Of a stretch of 64,000 bases of DNA, positions 32,288 to 63,414 are shown one piece after another. How positions within the stretch are numbered: position 1 is the stretch's first letter; the number at the start of each line of letters is the position of its first letter. Location of the stretch: the NCBI RefSeq assembly GCF_006385705.1, contig NZ_VFRQ01000004.1:367117-431116 (forward strand), given 5' to 3'. Below the pieces are notes generated by a model. That model was given only the letters and a program-made list of their open reading frames with translations. It was not told the origin of the DNA and made no database searches. The translations under genes were made by a program, and so were the position numbers. Source of the DNA: Pontibacter mangrovi. GTDB taxonomy: Bacteria; Bacteroidota; Bacteroidia; Cytophagales; Hymenobacteraceae.

Positions 32288-32450
32288 ATAACAAGTATAA
32301 AATGAGTCTACATCAGCCTGTTTTCAGGCTATTTAAGCAGACGTCATCAGCTCTGCGGCAGAGCGGTTCCAGGCAGACATCATTGCCGGTTGTAGCTGCG
32401 AATTTAGTTATTTTTCTGAAAGTGGGGAGAGGCGTAGTTGGTAGCGAACA

Positions 32451-56664: not shown

Positions 56665-56739
56665 AGAACCAGAAATACCGGCTGAAGTTGCAGCCATACT
56701 TTGCGGCTGCTTATCTTCACCAGAACAATTAACCGAAGC

Positions 56740-57255
56740 ATGAAAATCCAAAACAGAGAGAAAGCCTATGATGGCTACTTTAAGATCTATAAGCTGACCG
56801 TTGAACAGCATGGCCAAACCTTTAACCGGGAGCAGTTTGACCGGGGCGATGCCGTGGCCGCGCTGGTGTTTGATACCGAAAAGCAGCAGTATATTTTAAC
56901 CAGGCAGTTTCGGGTGGGCTCGGAGTCGGAGCTGGTGGAGGTAGTGGCAGGCATGGTGGACAAAGGCGAGCAGCCCGAGGAAAGTATAAAGCGCGAGATT
57001 GAGGAAGAAACCGGCTACCATGTGGACAGGCTGCAGCATCTGCATACGTTCTACTCCTCGCCGGGCGGCACCACGGAGCGGGTGATGCTCTACTATGCCG
57101 AGGTAACGCAGCAGAAGGGGACAGGCGGCGGCAACGCCCATGAGCACGAGTTCATCGAGATCCTGCACCTGTCTCCTGCAGAACTGGACGCTTTGAAAAC
57201 GCCTGACGCCAAGACCATTATTGCACAGCAGTGGGCCAGGCTGCAACAAAAGTAG
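56740..57255 (+). CDS. NUDIX hydrolase, ADP-ribose pyrophosphatase type
   Basis: 171 residues from MKIQNREKAY. The complete Nudix box begins GMVDKGE and ends REIEEETGY, and SSPGGTTERVMLYYAEV follows, as in ADP-ribose pyrophosphatases. Cleaves ADP-ribose or GDP-mannose-like substrates. Last conventional gene before the cassette array. Confidence 0.9.
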   Translation: MKIQNREKAYDGYFKIYKLTVEQHGQTFNREQFDRGDAVAALVFDTEKQQYILTRQFRVGSESELVEVVAGMVDKGEQPEESIKREIEEETGYHVDRLQHLHTFYSSPGGTTERVMLYYAEVTQQKGTGGGNAHEHEFIEILHLSPAELDALKTPDAKTIIAQQWARLQQK

Positions 57256-57316: not shown

Positions 57317-57409
57317 ATAGTGTTGATAATATATAGTATATTCGGTAGCCCGATTCCGTATAGCCGCTGGATTTGGGCGTATAAACGGAATAACTCCTTG
57401 TACACACTA

Positions 57410-57416
57410 GTTGAGC
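57410..57416 (+). other. Left boundary core box GTTGAGC of the array
   Basis: Matches GTTRRRY and is the exact complement of the R'' box at 58197. No palindromic left half precedes it, so this is either an attI-like site or a secondary insertion point. Confidence 0.65.
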
Positions 57417-57436
57417 TCAATTAAAATTATAAAGAA

Positions 57437-58192
57437 GTGACCGAAGAAGAGCATAAAGCACATGAAGAAGAAACCGAAAGGAAAATTCGGGAAAATGTAC
57501 AGAAGTTTGGGTGCCATATTGTGCTGATTGAGCCTGATAATTATTTGCCAGGTTTTGCTTATTCTATTGGTCTTTATAAAAACTTTGGACACCCAGAGAT
57601 AATCTGCTTCGGCCTAAGTACAGACCTCTTAGGGTCATTTATCAATACAACCCGTGATTTAATTAAAGAAGGTCAGCAGCTCACTACAGGCAAATCATAT
57701 TCAGATTTTCTTGAAGATTTCGATGTGCAATTTTTAAAAGTAGATAAGGACCATCTGCCAGACTACATGGGTTACGCTAAATGGTTTTATAAAAGCTGGG
57801 ACTTTCCTGTTCTTCAACTTGTCTGCCCTGACAAAGAGAGCCATTTTCCGTGGGAAGAAAAGTTTAATAATAAATGGAAATTCAAGCAGCCTTTGCTGGA
57901 CAGGAGTACGGACTTCAAATTCTACGAAGAAAGAAATTTAGGAGTCTTTACCACCAAACAGGTTTTAGAAGGAGCTCCCATACTTTACGTTTATCACAAT
58001 GAAGACGGAGATTGGCAGTTCCACTCTTCATCAGAACCAGACATAAATGACTCTAAGCTCGTCTGCCTGGAAGAAATAGTGAAAATAGACCCAGCTATCA
58101 ACAAGATTTACTATCTTCCATATGGCTGGAGAGCTTGGCGTGAGTCAAAAGAAGCCGATTGGGAAACTGAAGAAGATACAGAAGAAGAATAA
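57437..58192 (+). CDS. Cassette 1: DUF4262 domain protein
   Basis: 251 residues, GTG start 21 bp inside the cassette. The first 25 residues are highly charged. The DUF4262 core follows: FGCHIVLIEPDNYLPGFAYSIGLYKNFGHPEIICFGL in overlapping parts, then a Trp-rich region. An acidic tail closes it. Cytoplasmic. DUF4262 has no known activity and recurs in mobile contexts. AT-rich codon use unlike the core genes. Confidence 0.8.
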   Translation: MTEEEHKAHEEETERKIRENVQKFGCHIVLIEPDNYLPGFAYSIGLYKNFGHPEIICFGLSTDLLGSFINTTRDLIKEGQQLTTGKSYSDFLEDFDVQFLKVDKDHLPDYMGYAKWFYKSWDFPVLQLVCPDKESHFPWEEKFNNKWKFKQPLLDRSTDFKFYEERNLGVFTTKQVLEGAPILYVYHNEDGDWQFHSSSEPDINDSKLVCLEEIVKIDPAINKIYYLPYGWRAWRESKEADWETEEDTEEE

Positions 58193-58196
58193 CAAA

Positions 58197-58262
58197 GCTC
58201 AACACGGCACAGGCTCCAAACTCGGCTATGCCTCGTTCACAGCCTGTCCAAATCCGTTATGC
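58197..58262 (+). other. attC-like site A
   Basis: GCTCAAC, 5-bp spacer, ACAGGCT, central part, AGCCTGT, 8-bp spacer, GTTATGC. Starts 5 bp after the stop codon. Confidence 0.75.
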
Positions 58263-58277
58263 CTCATTTTAAATAAT

Positions 58278-58757
58278 ATGAATTTATTTCCTTCACTGGT
58301 TTACAAAATTGAGTTACCTGACGATTCTACAATAGCTTTAAATCATCTACAACAAAATACAAAGCTTACCGACTTACTTGTTCTGGAGTCGACGGATAAG
58401 GCATTTATTGGGCAGGTAAAGGAAAATAGTTTTAAGGTAATCTCATCTGCAAAGTATGGAGCATTTTGTGTTCTAAGTGGTGACTTTCAAGGAAAAGTGG
58501 GTTCAATTGAAATAAGACTTCATCTTACATACAAAATACTGTCCTCAATTTTGATGTTGCTTCCAATCCTTTCCATTTTGTTGACACTTTTACGAAAAGA
58601 AGTAGAAAAACCTATTGGACTTATTCTTCCTGTATTATTAGGAATCTTGTTTGTGAGGTTTATTATCGTGGAATTAAATTTTAGATTAATTTCAAAAAAA
58701 GTATTGAATAGGCTAACTGGAATAATAAGAATAAGCGCAATAAAGAACGTGGCATAA
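58278..58757 (+). CDS. Cassette 2: hypothetical two-helix membrane protein
   Basis: 159 residues from MNLFPSLVYK; the longer frame crosses the recombination site and is rejected. A soluble N-terminal half of about 80 residues precedes two strongly hydrophobic helices and a basic tail. No family recognised. The stop codon TAA is part of the R'' box of the next site. Confidence 0.7.
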   Translation: MNLFPSLVYKIELPDDSTIALNHLQQNTKLTDLLVLESTDKAFIGQVKENSFKVISSAKYGAFCVLSGDFQGKVGSIEIRLHLTYKILSSILMLLPILSILLTLLRKEVEKPIGLILPVLLGILFVRFIIVELNFRLISKKVLNRLTGIIRISAIKNVA

Positions 58758-58819
58758 CAAGGTGCATGAGCCATGCTACGGCCGACGGCCTAGCACGTCT
58801 CATGCACTAGCCGTTGTGC
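58752..58819 (+). other. attC-like site B
   Basis: GCATAAC, 5 bp, GCATGAG; closing arm CTCATGC, 7 bp, GTTGTGC. The centre folds as TGCTA-c-GGCC-gac-GGCC-TAGCA with one unpaired C, like an extrahelical base. Confidence 0.8.
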
Positions 58820-58835
58820 GGTATACCTAGAATAA

Positions 58836-59561
58836 ATGAAGAAGATTCCGTTCCTCCTTTGGTGGGTAGTTTTGTTAGTGTTTTCTTGTTCGACAGAGCG
58901 AGAGACGAAATCTGGGATTTTCTGGAAAATTACTTCAAACGACGGAAATGAATCTTTTTTGTATGGGACAATGCATGAGTACCCTGAAGGACGAATAGCA
59001 GTAAGCAAGAAAGTTTTATCGGCTCTGAGGACATGCAAGACATTAGCACTTGAGAGAGATTTAAAGAATGTAGAAGACCAGCGAATTTTTCTTCAAAACG
59101 ATAAGCATAAGGTAGACCTAAAGGCAAACCAGGTGATTGCCAGTAGATACAACCTGAAAAGTATGGAGGGTGAGTTGGTAAGTGTTGCCAACAGCAATAA
59201 CATAAAAATAAGAGGGTTGGAAACTGCAAAAGAACTACTAGATGTGTTAGATAAGGTTCCGCATCGATATGAAAGCCAAACGGAGGAACAGACGATAGAA
59301 CATTACGAGCAGCTAATCAATATTTACAACAGCGAACTTATAGATTATTTCGCAGATGAGTTCTTGGTTAAAGAATTTGGTGATGAAACACGGAAGCTAG
59401 TAGTCAACCAGAGGACACTGAACTGGTTAGATGATATTGAAGGCTTAGTAAAAGAAGACAAGACATTCATTGCTGTAGGAATGGGGCACCTAGGAGGTAA
59501 AAACGGGCTATTGAATTTGCTGAAGAATAAAGGCTATAAGCTGGAAAGAATAAGATTATAA
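58836..59561 (+). CDS. Cassette 3: TraB/GumN family lipoprotein
   Basis: 241 residues with lipobox VFSCS (Cys 18). TraB/GumN motifs: SFLYGTMHE near the N-terminus, LALERDL, and terminal AVGMGHLGGKNGLLNLLKNKGY. Relatives are putative metal-dependent peptidase-like erythromycin-esterase-fold proteins of uncertain activity. Complete, in frame, so apparently functional. Confidence 0.82.
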   Translation: MKKIPFLLWWVVLLVFSCSTERETKSGIFWKITSNDGNESFLYGTMHEYPEGRIAVSKKVLSALRTCKTLALERDLKNVEDQRIFLQNDKHKVDLKANQVIASRYNLKSMEGELVSVANSNNIKIRGLETAKELLDVLDKVPHRYESQTEEQTIEHYEQLINIYNSELIDYFADEFLVKEFGDETRKLVVNQRTLNWLDDIEGLVKEDKTFIAVGMGHLGGKNGLLNLLKNKGYKLERIRL

Positions 59562-59569
59562 GTACAGCT

Positions 59570-59623
59570 GCACAACAACACCTAAAAGGCAGCTCCGCCA
59601 CCTTTTAGCCCAACACGTTAGAC
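59570..59623 (+). other. attC-like site C
   Basis: GCACAAC, 5 bp, CTAAAAGG, 11-base centre, CCTTTTAG, 8 bp, GTTAGAC (perfect GTTRRRY). Confidence 0.85.
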
Positions 59624-59637
59624 TAAATTAGTAACTA

Positions 59638-60042
59638 ATGAAAAAAGCTTTAATACTCTTAGGTGTAGTCTTTTCATTAGTGAGTTGTTCGGATGAACAA
59701 TCAAATCAAGATGAGGGAGAACTTTTATTAAGCAAACGTTTAGGTGCCGAAGAGGTGCAAATGTCTTTTAACTATAAGCACTCAGCTGGAAATGATGAAT
59801 TTATACTTCAAGAAAGTTATCTTTCTATTGACGTGTGCAATTCAGCTAAGATTAATAAAATCAAGCACAATGAGAGACTGTTTCAAAGGGAGGCCGAAAA
59901 ACTAAAAAGTTTAGTAGTGGACTCAATGAAGTTCGAGCCTCAAATGGAATATGATGAGTTGAGAATCAACTTTATTGACAGAAAGGATTTCCTGTTCTTC
60001 AAGAAGGAAGATACTAAAACGGTAACTTATCATTCTCTTTAG
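59638..60042 (+). CDS. Cassette 4: hypothetical lipoprotein
   Basis: 134 residues, lipobox SLVSC (Cys 17). Charged mature region with Lys/Glu pairs; no recognised domain. ATG 15 bp inside the cassette. Contains the only AAGTATA-family heptamer of the array. Confidence 0.7.
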   Translation: MKKALILLGVVFSLVSCSDEQSNQDEGELLLSKRLGAEEVQMSFNYKHSAGNDEFILQESYLSIDVCNSAKINKIKHNERLFQREAEKLKSLVVDSMKFEPQMEYDELRINFIDRKDFLFFKKEDTKTVTYHSL

Positions 60043-60070
60043 TATTATTGCGAATTTGAATAACAGCAAA

Positions 60071-60123
60071 GTCTAACAAAGCCTAAAGCACACCAAGGCG
60101 TGCCTTAGCCCAGCACGTTGGCA
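60071..60123 (+). other. attC-like site D
   Basis: GTCTAAC, 5 bp, CTAAAGCA, centre, TGCCTTAG, 8 bp, GTTGGCA. Arms differ by one G-T type mismatch. Confidence 0.8.
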
Positions 60124-60161
60124 GTAAGGCGAATTAAAGAATTCTTGATTAAAGTGACAAA

Positions 60162-60635
60162 ATGAAAGAATGGGCCTTTTTTATAGTGATGATAGCTTTC
60201 CCGCTTTTAGGGTATAGCCAAAAGAAGGTCTTCTTTAAGCCCCACATTTCCTATGATACCGCACAAGTAAAATGTCTTGGTAAAACCGTGCAGGTAGACA
60301 ATTCAGACACCTTAAACAATGTGTTCTTTGACGACTTAGAGTTTTGCATTAAGTTTAAAGGAGGTGAAGAAGCTTTAGTTAAATATTTGGTTGATAGTTT
60401 TCAAGTACCCGTCGATGATAAACATCATAATATTAGCGGTAAAGTACTTGCAAGCTTCACAGTCAATGAAAAGGGAGAAGTCGGGGATATTAAAATTGAA
60501 GAAGGTCTTTGTGAGGAAATAGATAATGAGGTGATAAGAGATATTTCTGAAATGCCTAAATGGATTTGGGACTGTGAAACCAAGCCAAGAAGGTCATATA
60601 AAACCAAGAGATTTGCTCCTTTTATCATACATTAA
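60162..60635 (+). CDS. Cassette 5: exported TonB C-terminal-like protein
   Basis: 157 residues with signal peptide to GYSQ. The second half resembles the TonB C-terminal fold (GKVLASFTVNEKGEVGDIKIEEG, then a helix and KRFAPFIIH), as in the many energy-transducer-like proteins of Bacteroidota. It lacks the membrane anchor and proline linker of true TonB. The central CIKFKGGEEALVKYLVDS motif is typical of that group. Confidence 0.72.
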   Translation: MKEWAFFIVMIAFPLLGYSQKKVFFKPHISYDTAQVKCLGKTVQVDNSDTLNNVFFDDLEFCIKFKGGEEALVKYLVDSFQVPVDDKHHNISGKVLASFTVNEKGEVGDIKIEEGLCEEIDNEVIRDISEMPKWIWDCETKPRRSYKTKRFAPFIIH

Positions 60636-60655
60636 GAGAACAAATAAAGCCCTTC

Positions 60656-60721
60656 TGCCAACAAAGTTCAGCCTTAACCCTTGCTACGCTACGGGCTTCG
60701 GCTGCACGAGTAACGTTGGCA
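60656..60721 (+). other. attC-like site E
   Basis: TGCCAAC, 5 bp, TCAGCC; closing arm GGCTGCA (one extra G), 8 bp CGAGTAAC, GTTGGCA. Confidence 0.85.
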
Positions 60722-60740
60722 CATATTGTAATTAAAAAAA

Positions 60741-61220
60741 ATGAAGAAGGCTTATCTGTCTGTATTCTTACTGGTTGTATTTCAAAGCCTTTGTTTCTCA
60801 CAAACTGTAGGGGAAAAGGAGTATAGAGTTACAATAAAAGAGTGGGCAATGGGTGCAGATAATTATTATGTCATAACTGCTGACTCTATAAAAATACGGA
60901 AGAGTGCATACCCTGAAGATATTAACTATACCTCCGCATTAACAAAAGAAGAGAGCCAGAAGATATTTGCCCCAATTGAAGCCGTTGATTTGAGAAAATT
61001 AGAAGAGCCTGTATATGTTTTTACAGCCCCACTACCTGAAGGTGAACTAAGCGACCATGGCTATCAGTATGATATAATGGTTCTTAATGGTGGAGTTACA
61101 AAAGGCTTCCATGTTGAGAGAGTCAAAGTAGACTTCTTATATGACTTTATCAAAGGGTTAAATCAGTATTTGCCTAACCAATTCAAGGTAGGGTATAATG
61201 ACAATTACCTGAAAAAATAA
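60741..61220 (+). CDS. Cassette 6: hypothetical exported protein
   Basis: 159 residues with signal peptide to CFSQ. Mature region beta-rich (EYRVTIKEWAMGADNYYVITADSIKIRK), no cysteine, no known domain. Similar short secreted proteins are frequent in integron cassettes; function unknown. Confidence 0.68.
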   Translation: MKKAYLSVFLLVVFQSLCFSQTVGEKEYRVTIKEWAMGADNYYVITADSIKIRKSAYPEDINYTSALTKEESQKIFAPIEAVDLRKLEEPVYVFTAPLPEGELSDHGYQYDIMVLNGGVTKGFHVERVKVDFLYDFIKGLNQYLPNQFKVGYNDNYLKK

Positions 61221-61224
61221 CAGG

Positions 61225-61292
61225 TGCCAACAAAATTCATAGTATATGCTACGGCTCCGCCTTGCCCACACTATGCACGAGTAACGTTGTAG
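61225..61292 (+). other. attC-like site F
   Basis: TGCCAAC, 5 bp, TCATAGT; closing arm ACTATGCA (one extra G), 8 bp CGAGTAAC, GTTGTAG. Very close in plan to site E. Confidence 0.82.
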
Positions 61293-61308
61293 AAGATATA
61301 GATAATAA

Positions 61309-61893
61309 ATGAAGAAGGGAATAATTGCGATTGTCTTCGCAGGCTTTTTGTCGCTACTCTTGTTTTACCTTTTAAGACCCAACAGTAATGTAGAGTTCTA
61401 TGATGGTTTATATGAGGAGCTATTGAAAGAAATGATGGCTGACAGTTCTGTGGTTGAGGCTTATGATGAAAATGGAAAACTAATATTTACAAGAAGAGAC
61501 ACTGTAAGCGAATCTGTGGAATTGGTCAACAGCCCATTGAGTGGGGATGTCTTTTACGGGCTTGCCAAAGATGAGGATAGAGGTTATCTAAAGAAGGAAG
61601 TCTTTAAGTATGAATACAGAAAAGAAGACTTGTCAGTGGGATTTAGCAATGATACTGCGTCGGCGTCGGCTCCTTTTGAGGCGGCTATTTACCTGAATAC
61701 AACAGACATAAAAAACGCATCTATAAGCATAAGAAATAATGATGCCTACACAGTTAAGCGGGAAGAGGGAGATTATAGAGTTAGGTATCTTTACAGAGCC
61801 AAAGCAACAAAGAAAGGAGTTAATACTTTCGAAGCAAAGGTAACTCTGCATGGGGAGGTGTACCCAGTTCAGTTCAACTACTTTGTAAAGTAA
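61309..61893 (+). CDS. Cassette 7: membrane-anchored hypothetical protein
   Basis: 194 residues. An N-terminal helix (4-23) anchors an otherwise hydrophilic, beta-rich exterior domain. Ends VYPVQFNYFVK; the C-terminal part resembles GldM-like Ig-type domains only loosely (AAIYLNTTDIKNASISIRNND). No family assigned. Confidence 0.68.
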   Translation: MKKGIIAIVFAGFLSLLLFYLLRPNSNVEFYDGLYEELLKEMMADSSVVEAYDENGKLIFTRRDTVSESVELVNSPLSGDVFYGLAKDEDRGYLKKEVFKYEYRKEDLSVGFSNDTASASAPFEAAIYLNTTDIKNASISIRNNDAYTVKREEGDYRVRYLYRAKATKKGVNTFEAKVTLHGEVYPVQFNYFVK

Positions 61894-61970
61894 AACAAGC
61901 ACCAGCTAACCCTACACAAGCTCTATACTCTACGCCTTGTTCCTATCTCTCAGAACTAACTACAGCATAA
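61894..61970 (+). other. Degenerate end site of cassette 7
   Basis: CTACAC at 61912 is one base short of the CTACAAC expected from the opening box GTTGTAG. ACAAG/CTTGT arms are recognisable, but no GTTnnnn closes it. Confidence 0.35.
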
Positions 61971-61974
61971 AAAA

Positions 61975-62622
61975 ATGATAAAAAAGCTATTTGTATTCTT
62001 TGGACTTGTTATCCTGGCGGTTTTCTTATATTACTTTTCTGTTATCCTGATAGCCAGGGCAAATACTAAGGAAATTGTTAATGAAGCTCTGGCATCTGAC
62101 AAGATGAAGCTGGAGCTTAATGATTTAACCGCAGAACAATTAGATGCCCTCCTAAAGATACAAGACCCCAATTTCTACAATCATAAAGGCGTTGACTTTG
62201 CCACTCCCGGGACAGGAGTTACGACTATAAGCCAGGGATTAGTTAAGATGTACTACTTTGAAAACTTTAAGCCTGGTCCTCAAAAAGTAAAGCAGACCCT
62301 TATTGCCAGATTCGCTTTTGACCCTTTAACCCCTAAAGACACCATCTTAAAGCTGTTCGTCAATGAGGCATACCTTGGGCAGGAAAATGGGAAACCTGTG
62401 AAAGGTTTTGAAGATGCTTCTCAGTATTACTTCCATAAGGAGTTTAAGCAGTTAAATTGGGATGAGTATCTTTCATTGCTGTCCATGATTCGCGCACCGT
62501 TCAAATTTCATTATTTCAATGAGCGAGAAAAGAACCTGGAACGAGTGGGAAGGATAAAAAAAGTATTGGCTGGTGATTATACTCCAGTTGACAATAGTGA
62601 CCTATTCTACGACAGAAGGTAA
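61975..62622 (+). CDS. GT51-like transglycosylase domain protein, catalytic Glu replaced
   Basis: 215 residues, one N-terminal helix and a glycosyltransferase-51 domain. The EDxxFxxHxG motif reads QDPNFYNHKG; GxTTISQGLVK is conserved; the RKxxE motif reads QKVKQT. Both catalytic glutamates therefore appear as Gln. ILKLFVNEAYLG and EYLSLLSMIRAP confirm the fold. Canonical members polymerise lipid II; this one may be inactive or a specialised binder. It lies just right of the cassettes and is also AT-rich. Confidence 0.75.
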   Translation: MIKKLFVFFGLVILAVFLYYFSVILIARANTKEIVNEALASDKMKLELNDLTAEQLDALLKIQDPNFYNHKGVDFATPGTGVTTISQGLVKMYYFENFKPGPQKVKQTLIARFAFDPLTPKDTILKLFVNEAYLGQENGKPVKGFEDASQYYFHKEFKQLNWDEYLSLLSMIRAPFKFHYFNEREKNLERVGRIKKVLAGDYTPVDNSDLFYDRR

Positions 62623-62724
62623 ACTGAAACCTTCCAAGTATGATTAATGCATAGTTTACGAGCTACAACCCCAACAAAAAAATATTTAAAGTATGGAAAC
62701 AACTACACTAAATTTAGGCCTCTT

Positions 62725-63162
62725 ATGTCAAGACAAACAGCCTTACTATTTCTAAGTGCCGTGATAATCACATCATGTGTAGATTATCAGGAGGAGAAGC
62801 CTAGTGCTAAAGATGAGCGCACTAAATTAGAGGTACAAACGGTGCCGGTCCGGCTATCTAAACCGGCAGTTGTAATTTTTGAAATGGACTCCCTGGAAAT
62901 TGAGCAACTGAAGGAGGCTGACGGAGAAGACATCTTTTATACTGCCGCTGATGATCTGATGTGGTACAATTATCAGTTGCAGCAAAAGATGGACTCTCTG
63001 GCTATACCGATGATGTATACAGAAGACGATACTTTGAAGGTGATAACCCCAAACCAAACTTATGAGATTGTTAAGGACTCAACGTTTACCGTTTATACTT
63101 ACTTTTATTATGATGGAGAGGATCTAACCAGGGTAGATCTTTTTGACCTTCTTGATAACTAA
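62725..63162 (+). CDS. Hypothetical lipoprotein
   Basis: 145 residues from MSRQTALLFL; lipobox IITSC (Cys 18). The longer frame would put 26 basic residues before the signal. Acidic mature part, Met-rich (AIPMMYTEDD), no domain recognised. Confidence 0.65.
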   Translation: MSRQTALLFLSAVIITSCVDYQEEKPSAKDERTKLEVQTVPVRLSKPAVVIFEMDSLEIEQLKEADGEDIFYTAADDLMWYNYQLQQKMDSLAIPMMYTEDDTLKVITPNQTYEIVKDSTFTVYTYFYYDGEDLTRVDLFDLLDN

Positions 63163-63414
63163 AAAACAGCATTAACTTCCCCTTTATCAAAGAATTACCA
63201 AACCCTAAATTAACCCTCGCTACTCCTCCACATCCCGGAACATATCCTGGGTATCGGCAGCGCTTTCCAAAATTAGATACTCTGGGGCGTCACGTTAACA
63301 GCATGAAGCAGTAGGCTTGGATGCCAGATAGCCGCAGCTGCGCATTCTATTCGTTCAACAATGTGCTGGCCGGTACGTATGCTTTGCTCAGTATTACCTA
63401 CTCAATGACAAGCC
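63163..63414. other. Intergenic region
   Basis: About 250 bp without recognisable gene, repeat or hairpin. Confidence 0.4.

What the first reader, a model, noticed from the sequence alone, without database searches (positions are those of the whole stretch)
57410..61970. Integron-style cassette array in a Bacteroidota chromosome
Seven AT-rich, one-gene units are aligned head to tail; six are followed by a 53-68 bp imperfect palindrome bounded by AAC...GTT core boxes. In each of cassettes 1-6 the opening 7-mer is the exact reverse complement of the R'' 7-mer that closes the same cassette (GTTGAGC/GCTCAAC, GTTATGC/GCATAAC, GTTGTGC/GCACAAC, GTTAGAC/GTCTAAC, GTTGGCA/TGCCAAC twice). This is the footprint of circular cassettes joined by recombination at the R' box. 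Chance agreement at six sites with four or five different sequences is negligible. To my knowledge integron arrays are best known in Gammaproteobacteria and scarce in Bacteroidota.
Basis: partly seen in the sequence, partly recalled or inferred. Interest (0 to 1): 0.93.

Follow-up and report, generated by a model that had tools for sequence, protein, structure and literature searches.

The report
Integrase-free landing site for gene cassettes
Six cassette-like genes stand in a row behind a short, likely landing site that recurs in this Bacteroidota genome without an enzyme gene beside it; they are likely moved in and out by a recombinase encoded elsewhere, of a family that lacks the extra helix thought essential in integrons, so a widespread gene-capture system may have been overlooked.

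Summary
The array is real. Six cassettes (57410-61285), each ending in a 53-68 nt attC-like hairpin, show exact 7-8 nt opening/closing complementarity; a seventh gene lacks attC. Covariance models trained only on other genomes hit all six sites and nothing else in the 64 kb (E<=1). In front lies a ~95-bp attI-like element (57318-57412) that recurs in the genome and genus with no integrase beside it: 20 of 22 copies fetched from other genomes are followed by attC hits, all downstream on the same strand. Four of the six cassettes recur singly in other species, three of them starting exactly at their GTT and directly behind an attI. The enzyme is not canonical IntI (none over cutoff here; 1 of 198 genomes of the class). 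A similar attI follows a 484-aa tyrosine recombinase, frameshifted in this genome, intact in relatives, with arrays downstream in the same direction. Its clade lacks the IntI I2 insertion (motif spacing 65-66 residues against 107). That it recombines these sites is inferred from linkage, not shown. Verdict: integron-type array, new variant: I2-less integrase clade plus solo attI platforms.

The parts
57318..57412 (+). solo attI-like element, ending at the GTT of cassette 1
   Evidence: nhmmer profile from 22 copies of other genomes, E 2.1e-24; in the window the only other hit at E<=0.1 is a weak minus-strand one inside it; own-genome copies L156, L157, L158
57337..57344 (+). predicted promoter -7 box TATATTCG
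   Evidence: conserved in the element (alignment); Bacteroidota -7 consensus recalled; not tested
57382..57402 (+). attI dyad, arms TAAACGGA / TCCTTGTA (2 mismatches)
   Evidence: without mismatch in other copies, e.g. L162, L163, L168
57410..58255 (+). cassette 1, DUF4262 gene 57437-58192
58197..58262 (+). attC 1
   Evidence: R1 E 6.2e-11; fold z -2.83
58256..58812 (+). cassette 2, gene about 58278-58757, no Pfam match
   Evidence: 88% copy behind a solo attI in G091
58752..58819 (+). attC 2
   Evidence: R1 E 1.4e-13; z -5.03
58813..59616 (+). cassette 3, TraB/PrgY/GumN-type gene 58836-59561
   Evidence: Pfam 1.9e-30; 82% copy in G071 behind a different attC-like end
59570..59623 (+). attC 3
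   Evidence: R2 E 4e-13
59617..60116 (+). cassette 4, gene 59638-60042, no Pfam match
60071..60123 (+). attC 4
   Evidence: R2 E 1.2e-10
60117..60714 (+). cassette 5, gene 60162-60635, weak TonB_C (below cutoff)
   Evidence: 73% copy behind a solo attI in G680
60656..60721 (+). attC 5
   Evidence: R1 E 3.6e-7
60715..61285 (+). cassette 6, gene 60741-61220, no Pfam match
   Evidence: 93% copy (60715-61288) directly behind an attI-like dyad in G113
61225..61292 (+). attC 6
   Evidence: R1 E 1.3e-9
61286..61974 (+). cassette 7, gene 61309-61893, closing attC absent
   Evidence: no CTACAAC in 61800-62100; no model hit
61975..63162 (+). two further low-GC genes (transglycosylase; unknown) without attC, in the same block
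56701..57255 (+). upstream flank gene (NUDIX-like; name from reading, no search)
   Evidence: conserved flank in relatives
63215..63284 (.). downstream conserved flank
   Evidence: found beyond the flank gene in L147-L150, 4 of the 9 relatives' loci L147-L155

Best explanation
The array is a set of cassette-like genes behind an attI-like site that has no integrase gene beside it, and the cassettes are likely inserted and excised there in trans by an integrase clade of Bacteroidota that lacks the I2 helix of IntI. Shown: the hairpin-ended units, the attI-like element repeated in genome and genus with attC sites behind it, single-cassette recurrence in other species, and linkage of the same kinds of site to an I2-less tyrosine recombinase in relatives. 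Inferred: circular cassettes, folded as single strands, recombine attC x attI at G|TT; the newest cassette sits next to attI and is predicted to be read from a promoter in the element. Inferred too: in this strain the enzyme is inactive or supplied by a copy not seen, since the copies found are frameshifted or truncated.
For: All six attC hit by models without own-genome training; changes on both sides in 6 of 7 pairs. Solo attI: 20 of 22 copies have attC hits, 36 of 36 hits in those loci downstream on the same strand; no integrase match in L156-L181. Recurrence: cassettes 2, 5, 6 directly behind an attI elsewhere, starting at their GTT; cassette 3 behind a different attC-like end. Orthologous locus: attI with other cassettes in L149 and L151; no attC hit in L147, L148, L150, L152 and no attI found there by blastn or seen in the stretches read. 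Integrase loci: chain of >=3 linked sites downstream in 22 of 35, 1 of 350 shuffles, upstream 0 of 20; opening GTT 136-155 nt after the integrase in 9 loci. Motif spacing 65-66 in 27 of 27 measurable (31 examined), IntI 107 in 10 of 10. The 27 array-linked integrases put in the tree lie in one clade, SH-aLRT 96, apart from IntI at 100.
Against: No recombination was observed. The only near full-length integrase of this kind found in this genome is frameshifted (C6), others are truncated (C5, C4), so activity in this strain is doubtful; further tyrosine recombinases (C33, C23, C4) were not examined. 13 of 35 integrase loci show no chain of 3, and a chain can count the attI as its first site; 14 of the 41 rows of the clade come from loci without a detected array, some of which end too soon. 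One named locus (L259) has a chain of 3 upstream too, L248 and L249 chains of 2. Solo copies L170 and L174 have no attC hit. Of 16 further own-genome loci fetched around attC hits, the attI profile hits 2 (L235, weakly L242); 14 have none, 6 of these with the array at a contig edge. Three of the four recurring cassettes diverge inside the closing attC.
Confidence: 0.82

Rival explanations
1. The array is a CALIN left by a canonical IntI that was lost, and the I2-less recombinase beside similar arrays is a passenger.
For: Canonical IntI occurs in other classes of the phylum, over cutoff in 105 of 395 genomes; CALINs by loss of intI are a published route (PMC8618304, passage).
Against: Canonical IntI over cutoff in 1 of 198 genomes of the class, while R1 attC sites are in 50 of 50 genomes of the genus. 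The I2-less integrase is followed by arrays at a fixed offset and strand, and the attI behind the own C6 integrase matches the window's attI at 84% over 38 nt.
Confidence: 0.07
2. Same system, but fossil in this strain: the integrase is broken and the array is frozen. Not exclusive of the best explanation.
For: C6 copy in two frames, C5 and C4 copies truncated; cassette 7 without attC.
Against: Cassettes 1-6 keep exact boxes and hairpins; a draft of 35 contigs can hide an intact copy, and several contigs break at arrays.
Confidence: 0.4
3. The host XerC/XerD recombine the sites, as with IMEX elements.
For: Open XerD-type (over cutoff) and XerC-type (under cutoff) genes are in this genome, and Xer proteins are described as the closest relatives of IntI (PMC7790495, passage).
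Against: A dedicated recombinase sits beside attI and arrays and falls outside the Xer clade at SH-aLRT 100.
Confidence: 0.04
4. Intergenic terminators or REP-like palindromes with chance box matches.
For: A loose chain search gives long chains in shuffles.
Against: Model specificity, covariation, attI linkage, match boundaries at the GTT.
Confidence: 0.01

Closest known systems
Canonical integron (IntI, attI, attC, Pc)
   Same: One-gene cassettes, RYYYAAC/GTTRRRY-like boxes, hairpin attC, attI, cassette-by-cassette exchange (comparative).
   Different: Integrase without the I2 insertion; cassette side at the 3' end of the integrase; stem mostly interrupted by a 1x1 mismatch in predicted folds; attI copies without integrase.
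CALIN (cluster of attC lacking integrase)
   Same: attC cluster with no intI nearby.
   Different: Headed by a conserved attI-like element that recurs with cassettes elsewhere in genome and genus.
Spirochaetota integrons with reversed intI
   Same: Typical Spirochaetota IntI are generally in reverse orientation (PMC9668308, passage).
   Different: Those are IntI; here the enzyme lacks I2 and is another clade.
XerC/XerD/XerA and other simple tyrosine recombinases
   Same: Core-binding plus catalytic fold; model matches XerA, XerH and IntI4 structures; best NCBIfam score is XerA_Arch, 210.2 of a cutoff of 220.
   Different: Clade apart from XerC/XerD, linked to attC arrays, and about 200 extra N-terminal residues in the close relatives of P0001.

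Membership tests
Integron (canonical) | Tandem one-gene cassettes with attC whose R'' mirrors the cassette's opening | tested here: met
   6 of 6, 7-8 nt
Integron (canonical) | attC folds as an imperfect hairpin with conserved structure | tested here: met
   own covariance models, not IntegronFinder's
Integron (canonical) | Extrahelical bases on the attC bottom strand | tested here: inconclusive
   predicted folds show a 1x1 mismatch after the first stem in 28 of 33, 59 of 92 and 19 of 41 sites; one-sided single-base loops are a minority; canonical attC not folded here
Integron (canonical) | attI site at the head of the array | tested here: met
   by comparison; recombination not tested
Integron (canonical) | IntI integrase with the additional (I2) domain | tested here: not met
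   0 over TIGR02249 cutoff in own genome; linked integrase 206.3 of 265 bits; spacing 65-66 against 107
Integron (canonical) | intI adjacent to attI | tested here: not met
   no TIGR02249 or P0001 match on the window's contig C30; met in the C6 locus and relatives by the I2-less enzyme
Integron (canonical) | Promoter Pc reading into the cassettes | not tested
   only a predicted -7 box
Integron (canonical) | Single cassettes gained, lost or moved at G|TT | tested here: met
   comparative only
CALIN | At least two attC without an intI nearby | tested here: met
   six attC, no integrase match on contig C30
Xer | Integrase falls among XerC/XerD | tested here: not met
   Xer rows separated at SH-aLRT 100; XerD 186.6 of 329.6 and XerC 183.7 of 335.15 bits

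The most novel reading that the evidence does not exclude
Bacteroidia run a second kind of integron: a tyrosine recombinase clade without I2 recombines hairpin attC sites that carry symmetric mismatches in place of extrahelical bases, and it loads cassettes in trans onto many promoter-bearing solo attI platforms scattered over the chromosome. Single-strand cassette recombination would then not depend on I2.
Probability: 0.68. Interest if true: 0.92.

Novelty: new variant of a known kind. Interest (0 to 1): 0.86.

Why it matters
The passages I saw hold that the I2 helix solved single-strand recombination (PMC7790495), is needed for it (PMC9668308) and lets IntI be told from other integrases (PMC9024848). 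An I2-less clade linked to attC arrays makes that directly testable, and bears on how integrons arose. Finders keyed to the IntI insertion would likely miss these integrases: in the class sampled, I2-less relatives (P0001 match at E<=1e-50) occur in 102 of 198 genomes and canonical IntI in 1 of 198, although not every relative is array-linked. Solo attI sites suggest that one enzyme may feed many expression platforms.

Tried and rejected
Loose chain detection of GTT/AAC boxes: rejected as a test, since shuffles reach 11; the hairpin rule was added. The first alignment A1 misaligned long sites and was not used; R1 and R2 were built from size classes of other genomes. The 129-135 nt class was not modelled. 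Rfam found no attC family hit in the window. Canonical IntI loci as orientation control: of 10 fetched, chains of 3 or more in L188 and L191 only, both on the 5' side of intI (positions), so my detector is not sensitive on them; in the named set 7 of 27 loci with spacing 107 have chains of 2 or more upstream and 1 of 27 downstream. Tree: the relation of IntI, the array clade and other I2-less recombinases is unresolved, so no claim on which is ancestral; L110 (array, chain of 3) was not in the trees because its protein was not extracted, and two named rows (L244, L246) are identical to L076 and L080. P0001-type hits also include plasmid recombinases of Acinetobacter and rhizobia and archaeal ones; the non-Bacteroidota I2-less loci fetched have no chain above 2, so the count of relatives is not a count of integrons. 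Loci were picked from the best matches with room, not at random. PMC8138268 (passages) says that the insertion is not fully conserved in its integron-like subgroup, which may already include such proteins. Paper searches listed no title or abstract start on I2-less integrases with attC arrays or on dispersed solo attI; the library lacks most subscription journals and preprints.
Full report
Observation. Reading the region and locating the boxes confirms six one-gene units from 57410 to 61285. The GTTNNNN that opens each unit is the exact reverse complement of the NNNNAAC that starts its closing palindrome, over 7-8 nt in 6 of 6. A seventh gene (61309-61893) opens at GTTGTAG but has no closing CTACAAC in 61800-62100 and no model hit. 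GC is 0.379 in the array against 0.530 in 1-57300. Chance: with positions fixed, 2000 shuffles reached at most 2 of 6 agreements. A loose chain search without the hairpin rule is worthless (10 shuffled windows gave longest chains of 4-11); with the hairpin rule 20 shuffles gave chains of at most 2, where the window gave 5 (that chain skips attC5 because cassettes 5 and 6 share one box) and the C6 array of the same genome 7.

attC test. On the bottom strand all six sites fold with one main hairpin, with z-scores from -0.49 to -5.03; only attC2 and attC3 fold better than all 200 shuffles. Models R1 (44 sites, 66-68 nt) and R2 (27 sites, 52-54 nt) were built from other genomes only; R1 shows both-sided changes in 6 of 7 pairs. 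R1 hits all six window sites, E 1.4e-13 to 4.3e-4, and nothing else in 64 kb at E<=1; R2 hits 59570 and 60071 at 4e-13 and 1.2e-10, and weakly 58187 at 0.5.

Linkage. Of 35 integrase loci with at least 4 kb downstream, 22 have chains of three or more linked sites downstream on the same strand (14 of 19 in the family set including own loci, 8 of 16 in other families; the first site can be the attI itself); 1 of 350 shuffles did; upstream, 0 of 20. The first GTT lies 136-155 nt after the integrase in nine loci of the close relatives, C6 included. Named examples: Pontibacter oryzae 5, Rufibacter sp. SYSU D00344 13, Arundinibacter roseus 4, Maribacter ulvicola 4; 8 of 19 Bacteroidota loci with at least 3 kb downstream. 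Against: L259 shows a chain of 3 upstream too, L248 and L249 chains of 2. Loci were chosen by match strength. In the class, P0001-type matches (E<=1e-50) occur in 102 of 198 genomes and canonical IntI in 1 of 198; in the phylum sample IntI is over cutoff in 105 of 395, of which one is in the own class.

Sites. Among 179 sites (173 chained plus the six of the window), 166 fall in three sizes: 52-54 (33), 64-69 (92) and 129-135 nt (41). The base before GTT is C in 173 of 179; after the first stem a 1x1 mismatch follows in 28 of 33, 59 of 92 and 19 of 41. Canonical attC sites carry extrahelical bases that I2 docks (PMC7790495, passages); I did not fold canonical sites, so the contrast is suggestive. 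attI: a dyad ending a few bases before (T)AGTT, e.g. TATAAACGGA-ATAAAC-TCCGTTTATA; scores of 7 or more in 16 of 41 attI against 26 of 2050 shuffles; the window's copy is degenerate.

Solo attI. The stretch just before cassette 1 recurs without integrase. A profile from 22 copies of other genomes hits 57318-57412 at 2.1e-24 and, in the own-genome loci examined, L156, L157, L158, L235, weakly L242, and the C6 attI (8.9e-4). Of 16 own-genome loci fetched around attC hits the profile thus hits 2; 14 have none, 6 of them with the array at a contig edge, so other heads or off-target cassettes exist. Of 22 copies from other genomes (L160-L181, taken from the list), 20 have attC hits at E<=0.1, and 36 of 36 hits in these loci lie downstream on the same strand; no integrase match in L156-L181 at 1e-10. 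R1 sites occur in 50 of 50 genomes of the genus, 10-70 each at E<=0.001, 33 here; 41 here at E<=0.05, on 12 or more contigs.

Movement. At the orthologous place after the flank gene, L149 (G061) and L151 (G064) carry an attI and other cassettes; L147, L148, L150 and L152 gave no attC hit, no attI by blastn and none in the stretches read. Single cassettes recur: cassette 6 in G113 (93%, from its GTT through the attC to the next GTT), cassette 2 in G091 (88%) and cassette 5 in G680 (73%), each match starting at the GTT and lying directly behind an attI, the last two of the solo type; cassette 3 in G071 (82%, match starting 2 nt before the GTT) behind a different attC-like end; the last three diverge inside the closing attC. 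In G013 cassette 6 matches together with part of attC 5. Cassettes 1 and 4 gave no long match in the list.

Mechanism and status. Shown: anatomy, linkage, recurrence. Inferred: single-strand attC folding in vivo, attC x attI recombination by the I2-less enzyme, action in trans on solo sites, promoter. Not settled: activity in this strain. Literature, passages only: I2 solved the single-strand constraints and Xer proteins lack it (PMC7790495; PMC4792948); the additional domain is necessary for integron recombination, and typical Spirochaetota IntI are generally reversed (PMC9668308); the extra domain distinguishes IntI, and only In0 and then one complete integron (Salinibacter) were reported in Bacteroidetes beside Chlorobi and Ignavibacteriae (PMC9024848). 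Membership in canonical integrons fails on the integrase; working like an integron is supported.

Noticed in passing
32331-32396 (-): Fluoride riboswitch, 50.3 bits.
   Followed up: no
L009:7369-7457 (-): tRNA-Ser beside the C6 integrase, with an ORF that reads like a piece of another integrase between them: a likely integration hot spot.
   Followed up: partly
G000 contig ends C2, C4, C30, C31: Several contigs begin or end in or next to attC hits, attI copies or an integrase end, so the assembly likely breaks at them.
   Followed up: partly
61975-63162: Transglycosylase gene and an unknown gene, low GC and without attC, between the array and the conserved downstream flank.
   Followed up: no
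179 attC sites, many loci: attC lengths fall in three narrow classes (52-54, 64-69, 129-135 nt); no explanation found.
   Followed up: partly
P0001 residues 1-200: The N-terminal region looks like two repeats of a small alpha/beta unit in the model; many relatives of 280-400 aa lack much of it.
   Followed up: no
plasmid records: Acinetobacter plasmid recombinases 53.6% identical to P0001 over residues 248-484, annotated TnpF in one of the 15 rows listed.
   Followed up: no
phylum sample: Canonical IntI is common outside the own class: over cutoff in 105 of 395 phylum genomes, one of them in the own class.
   Followed up: partly
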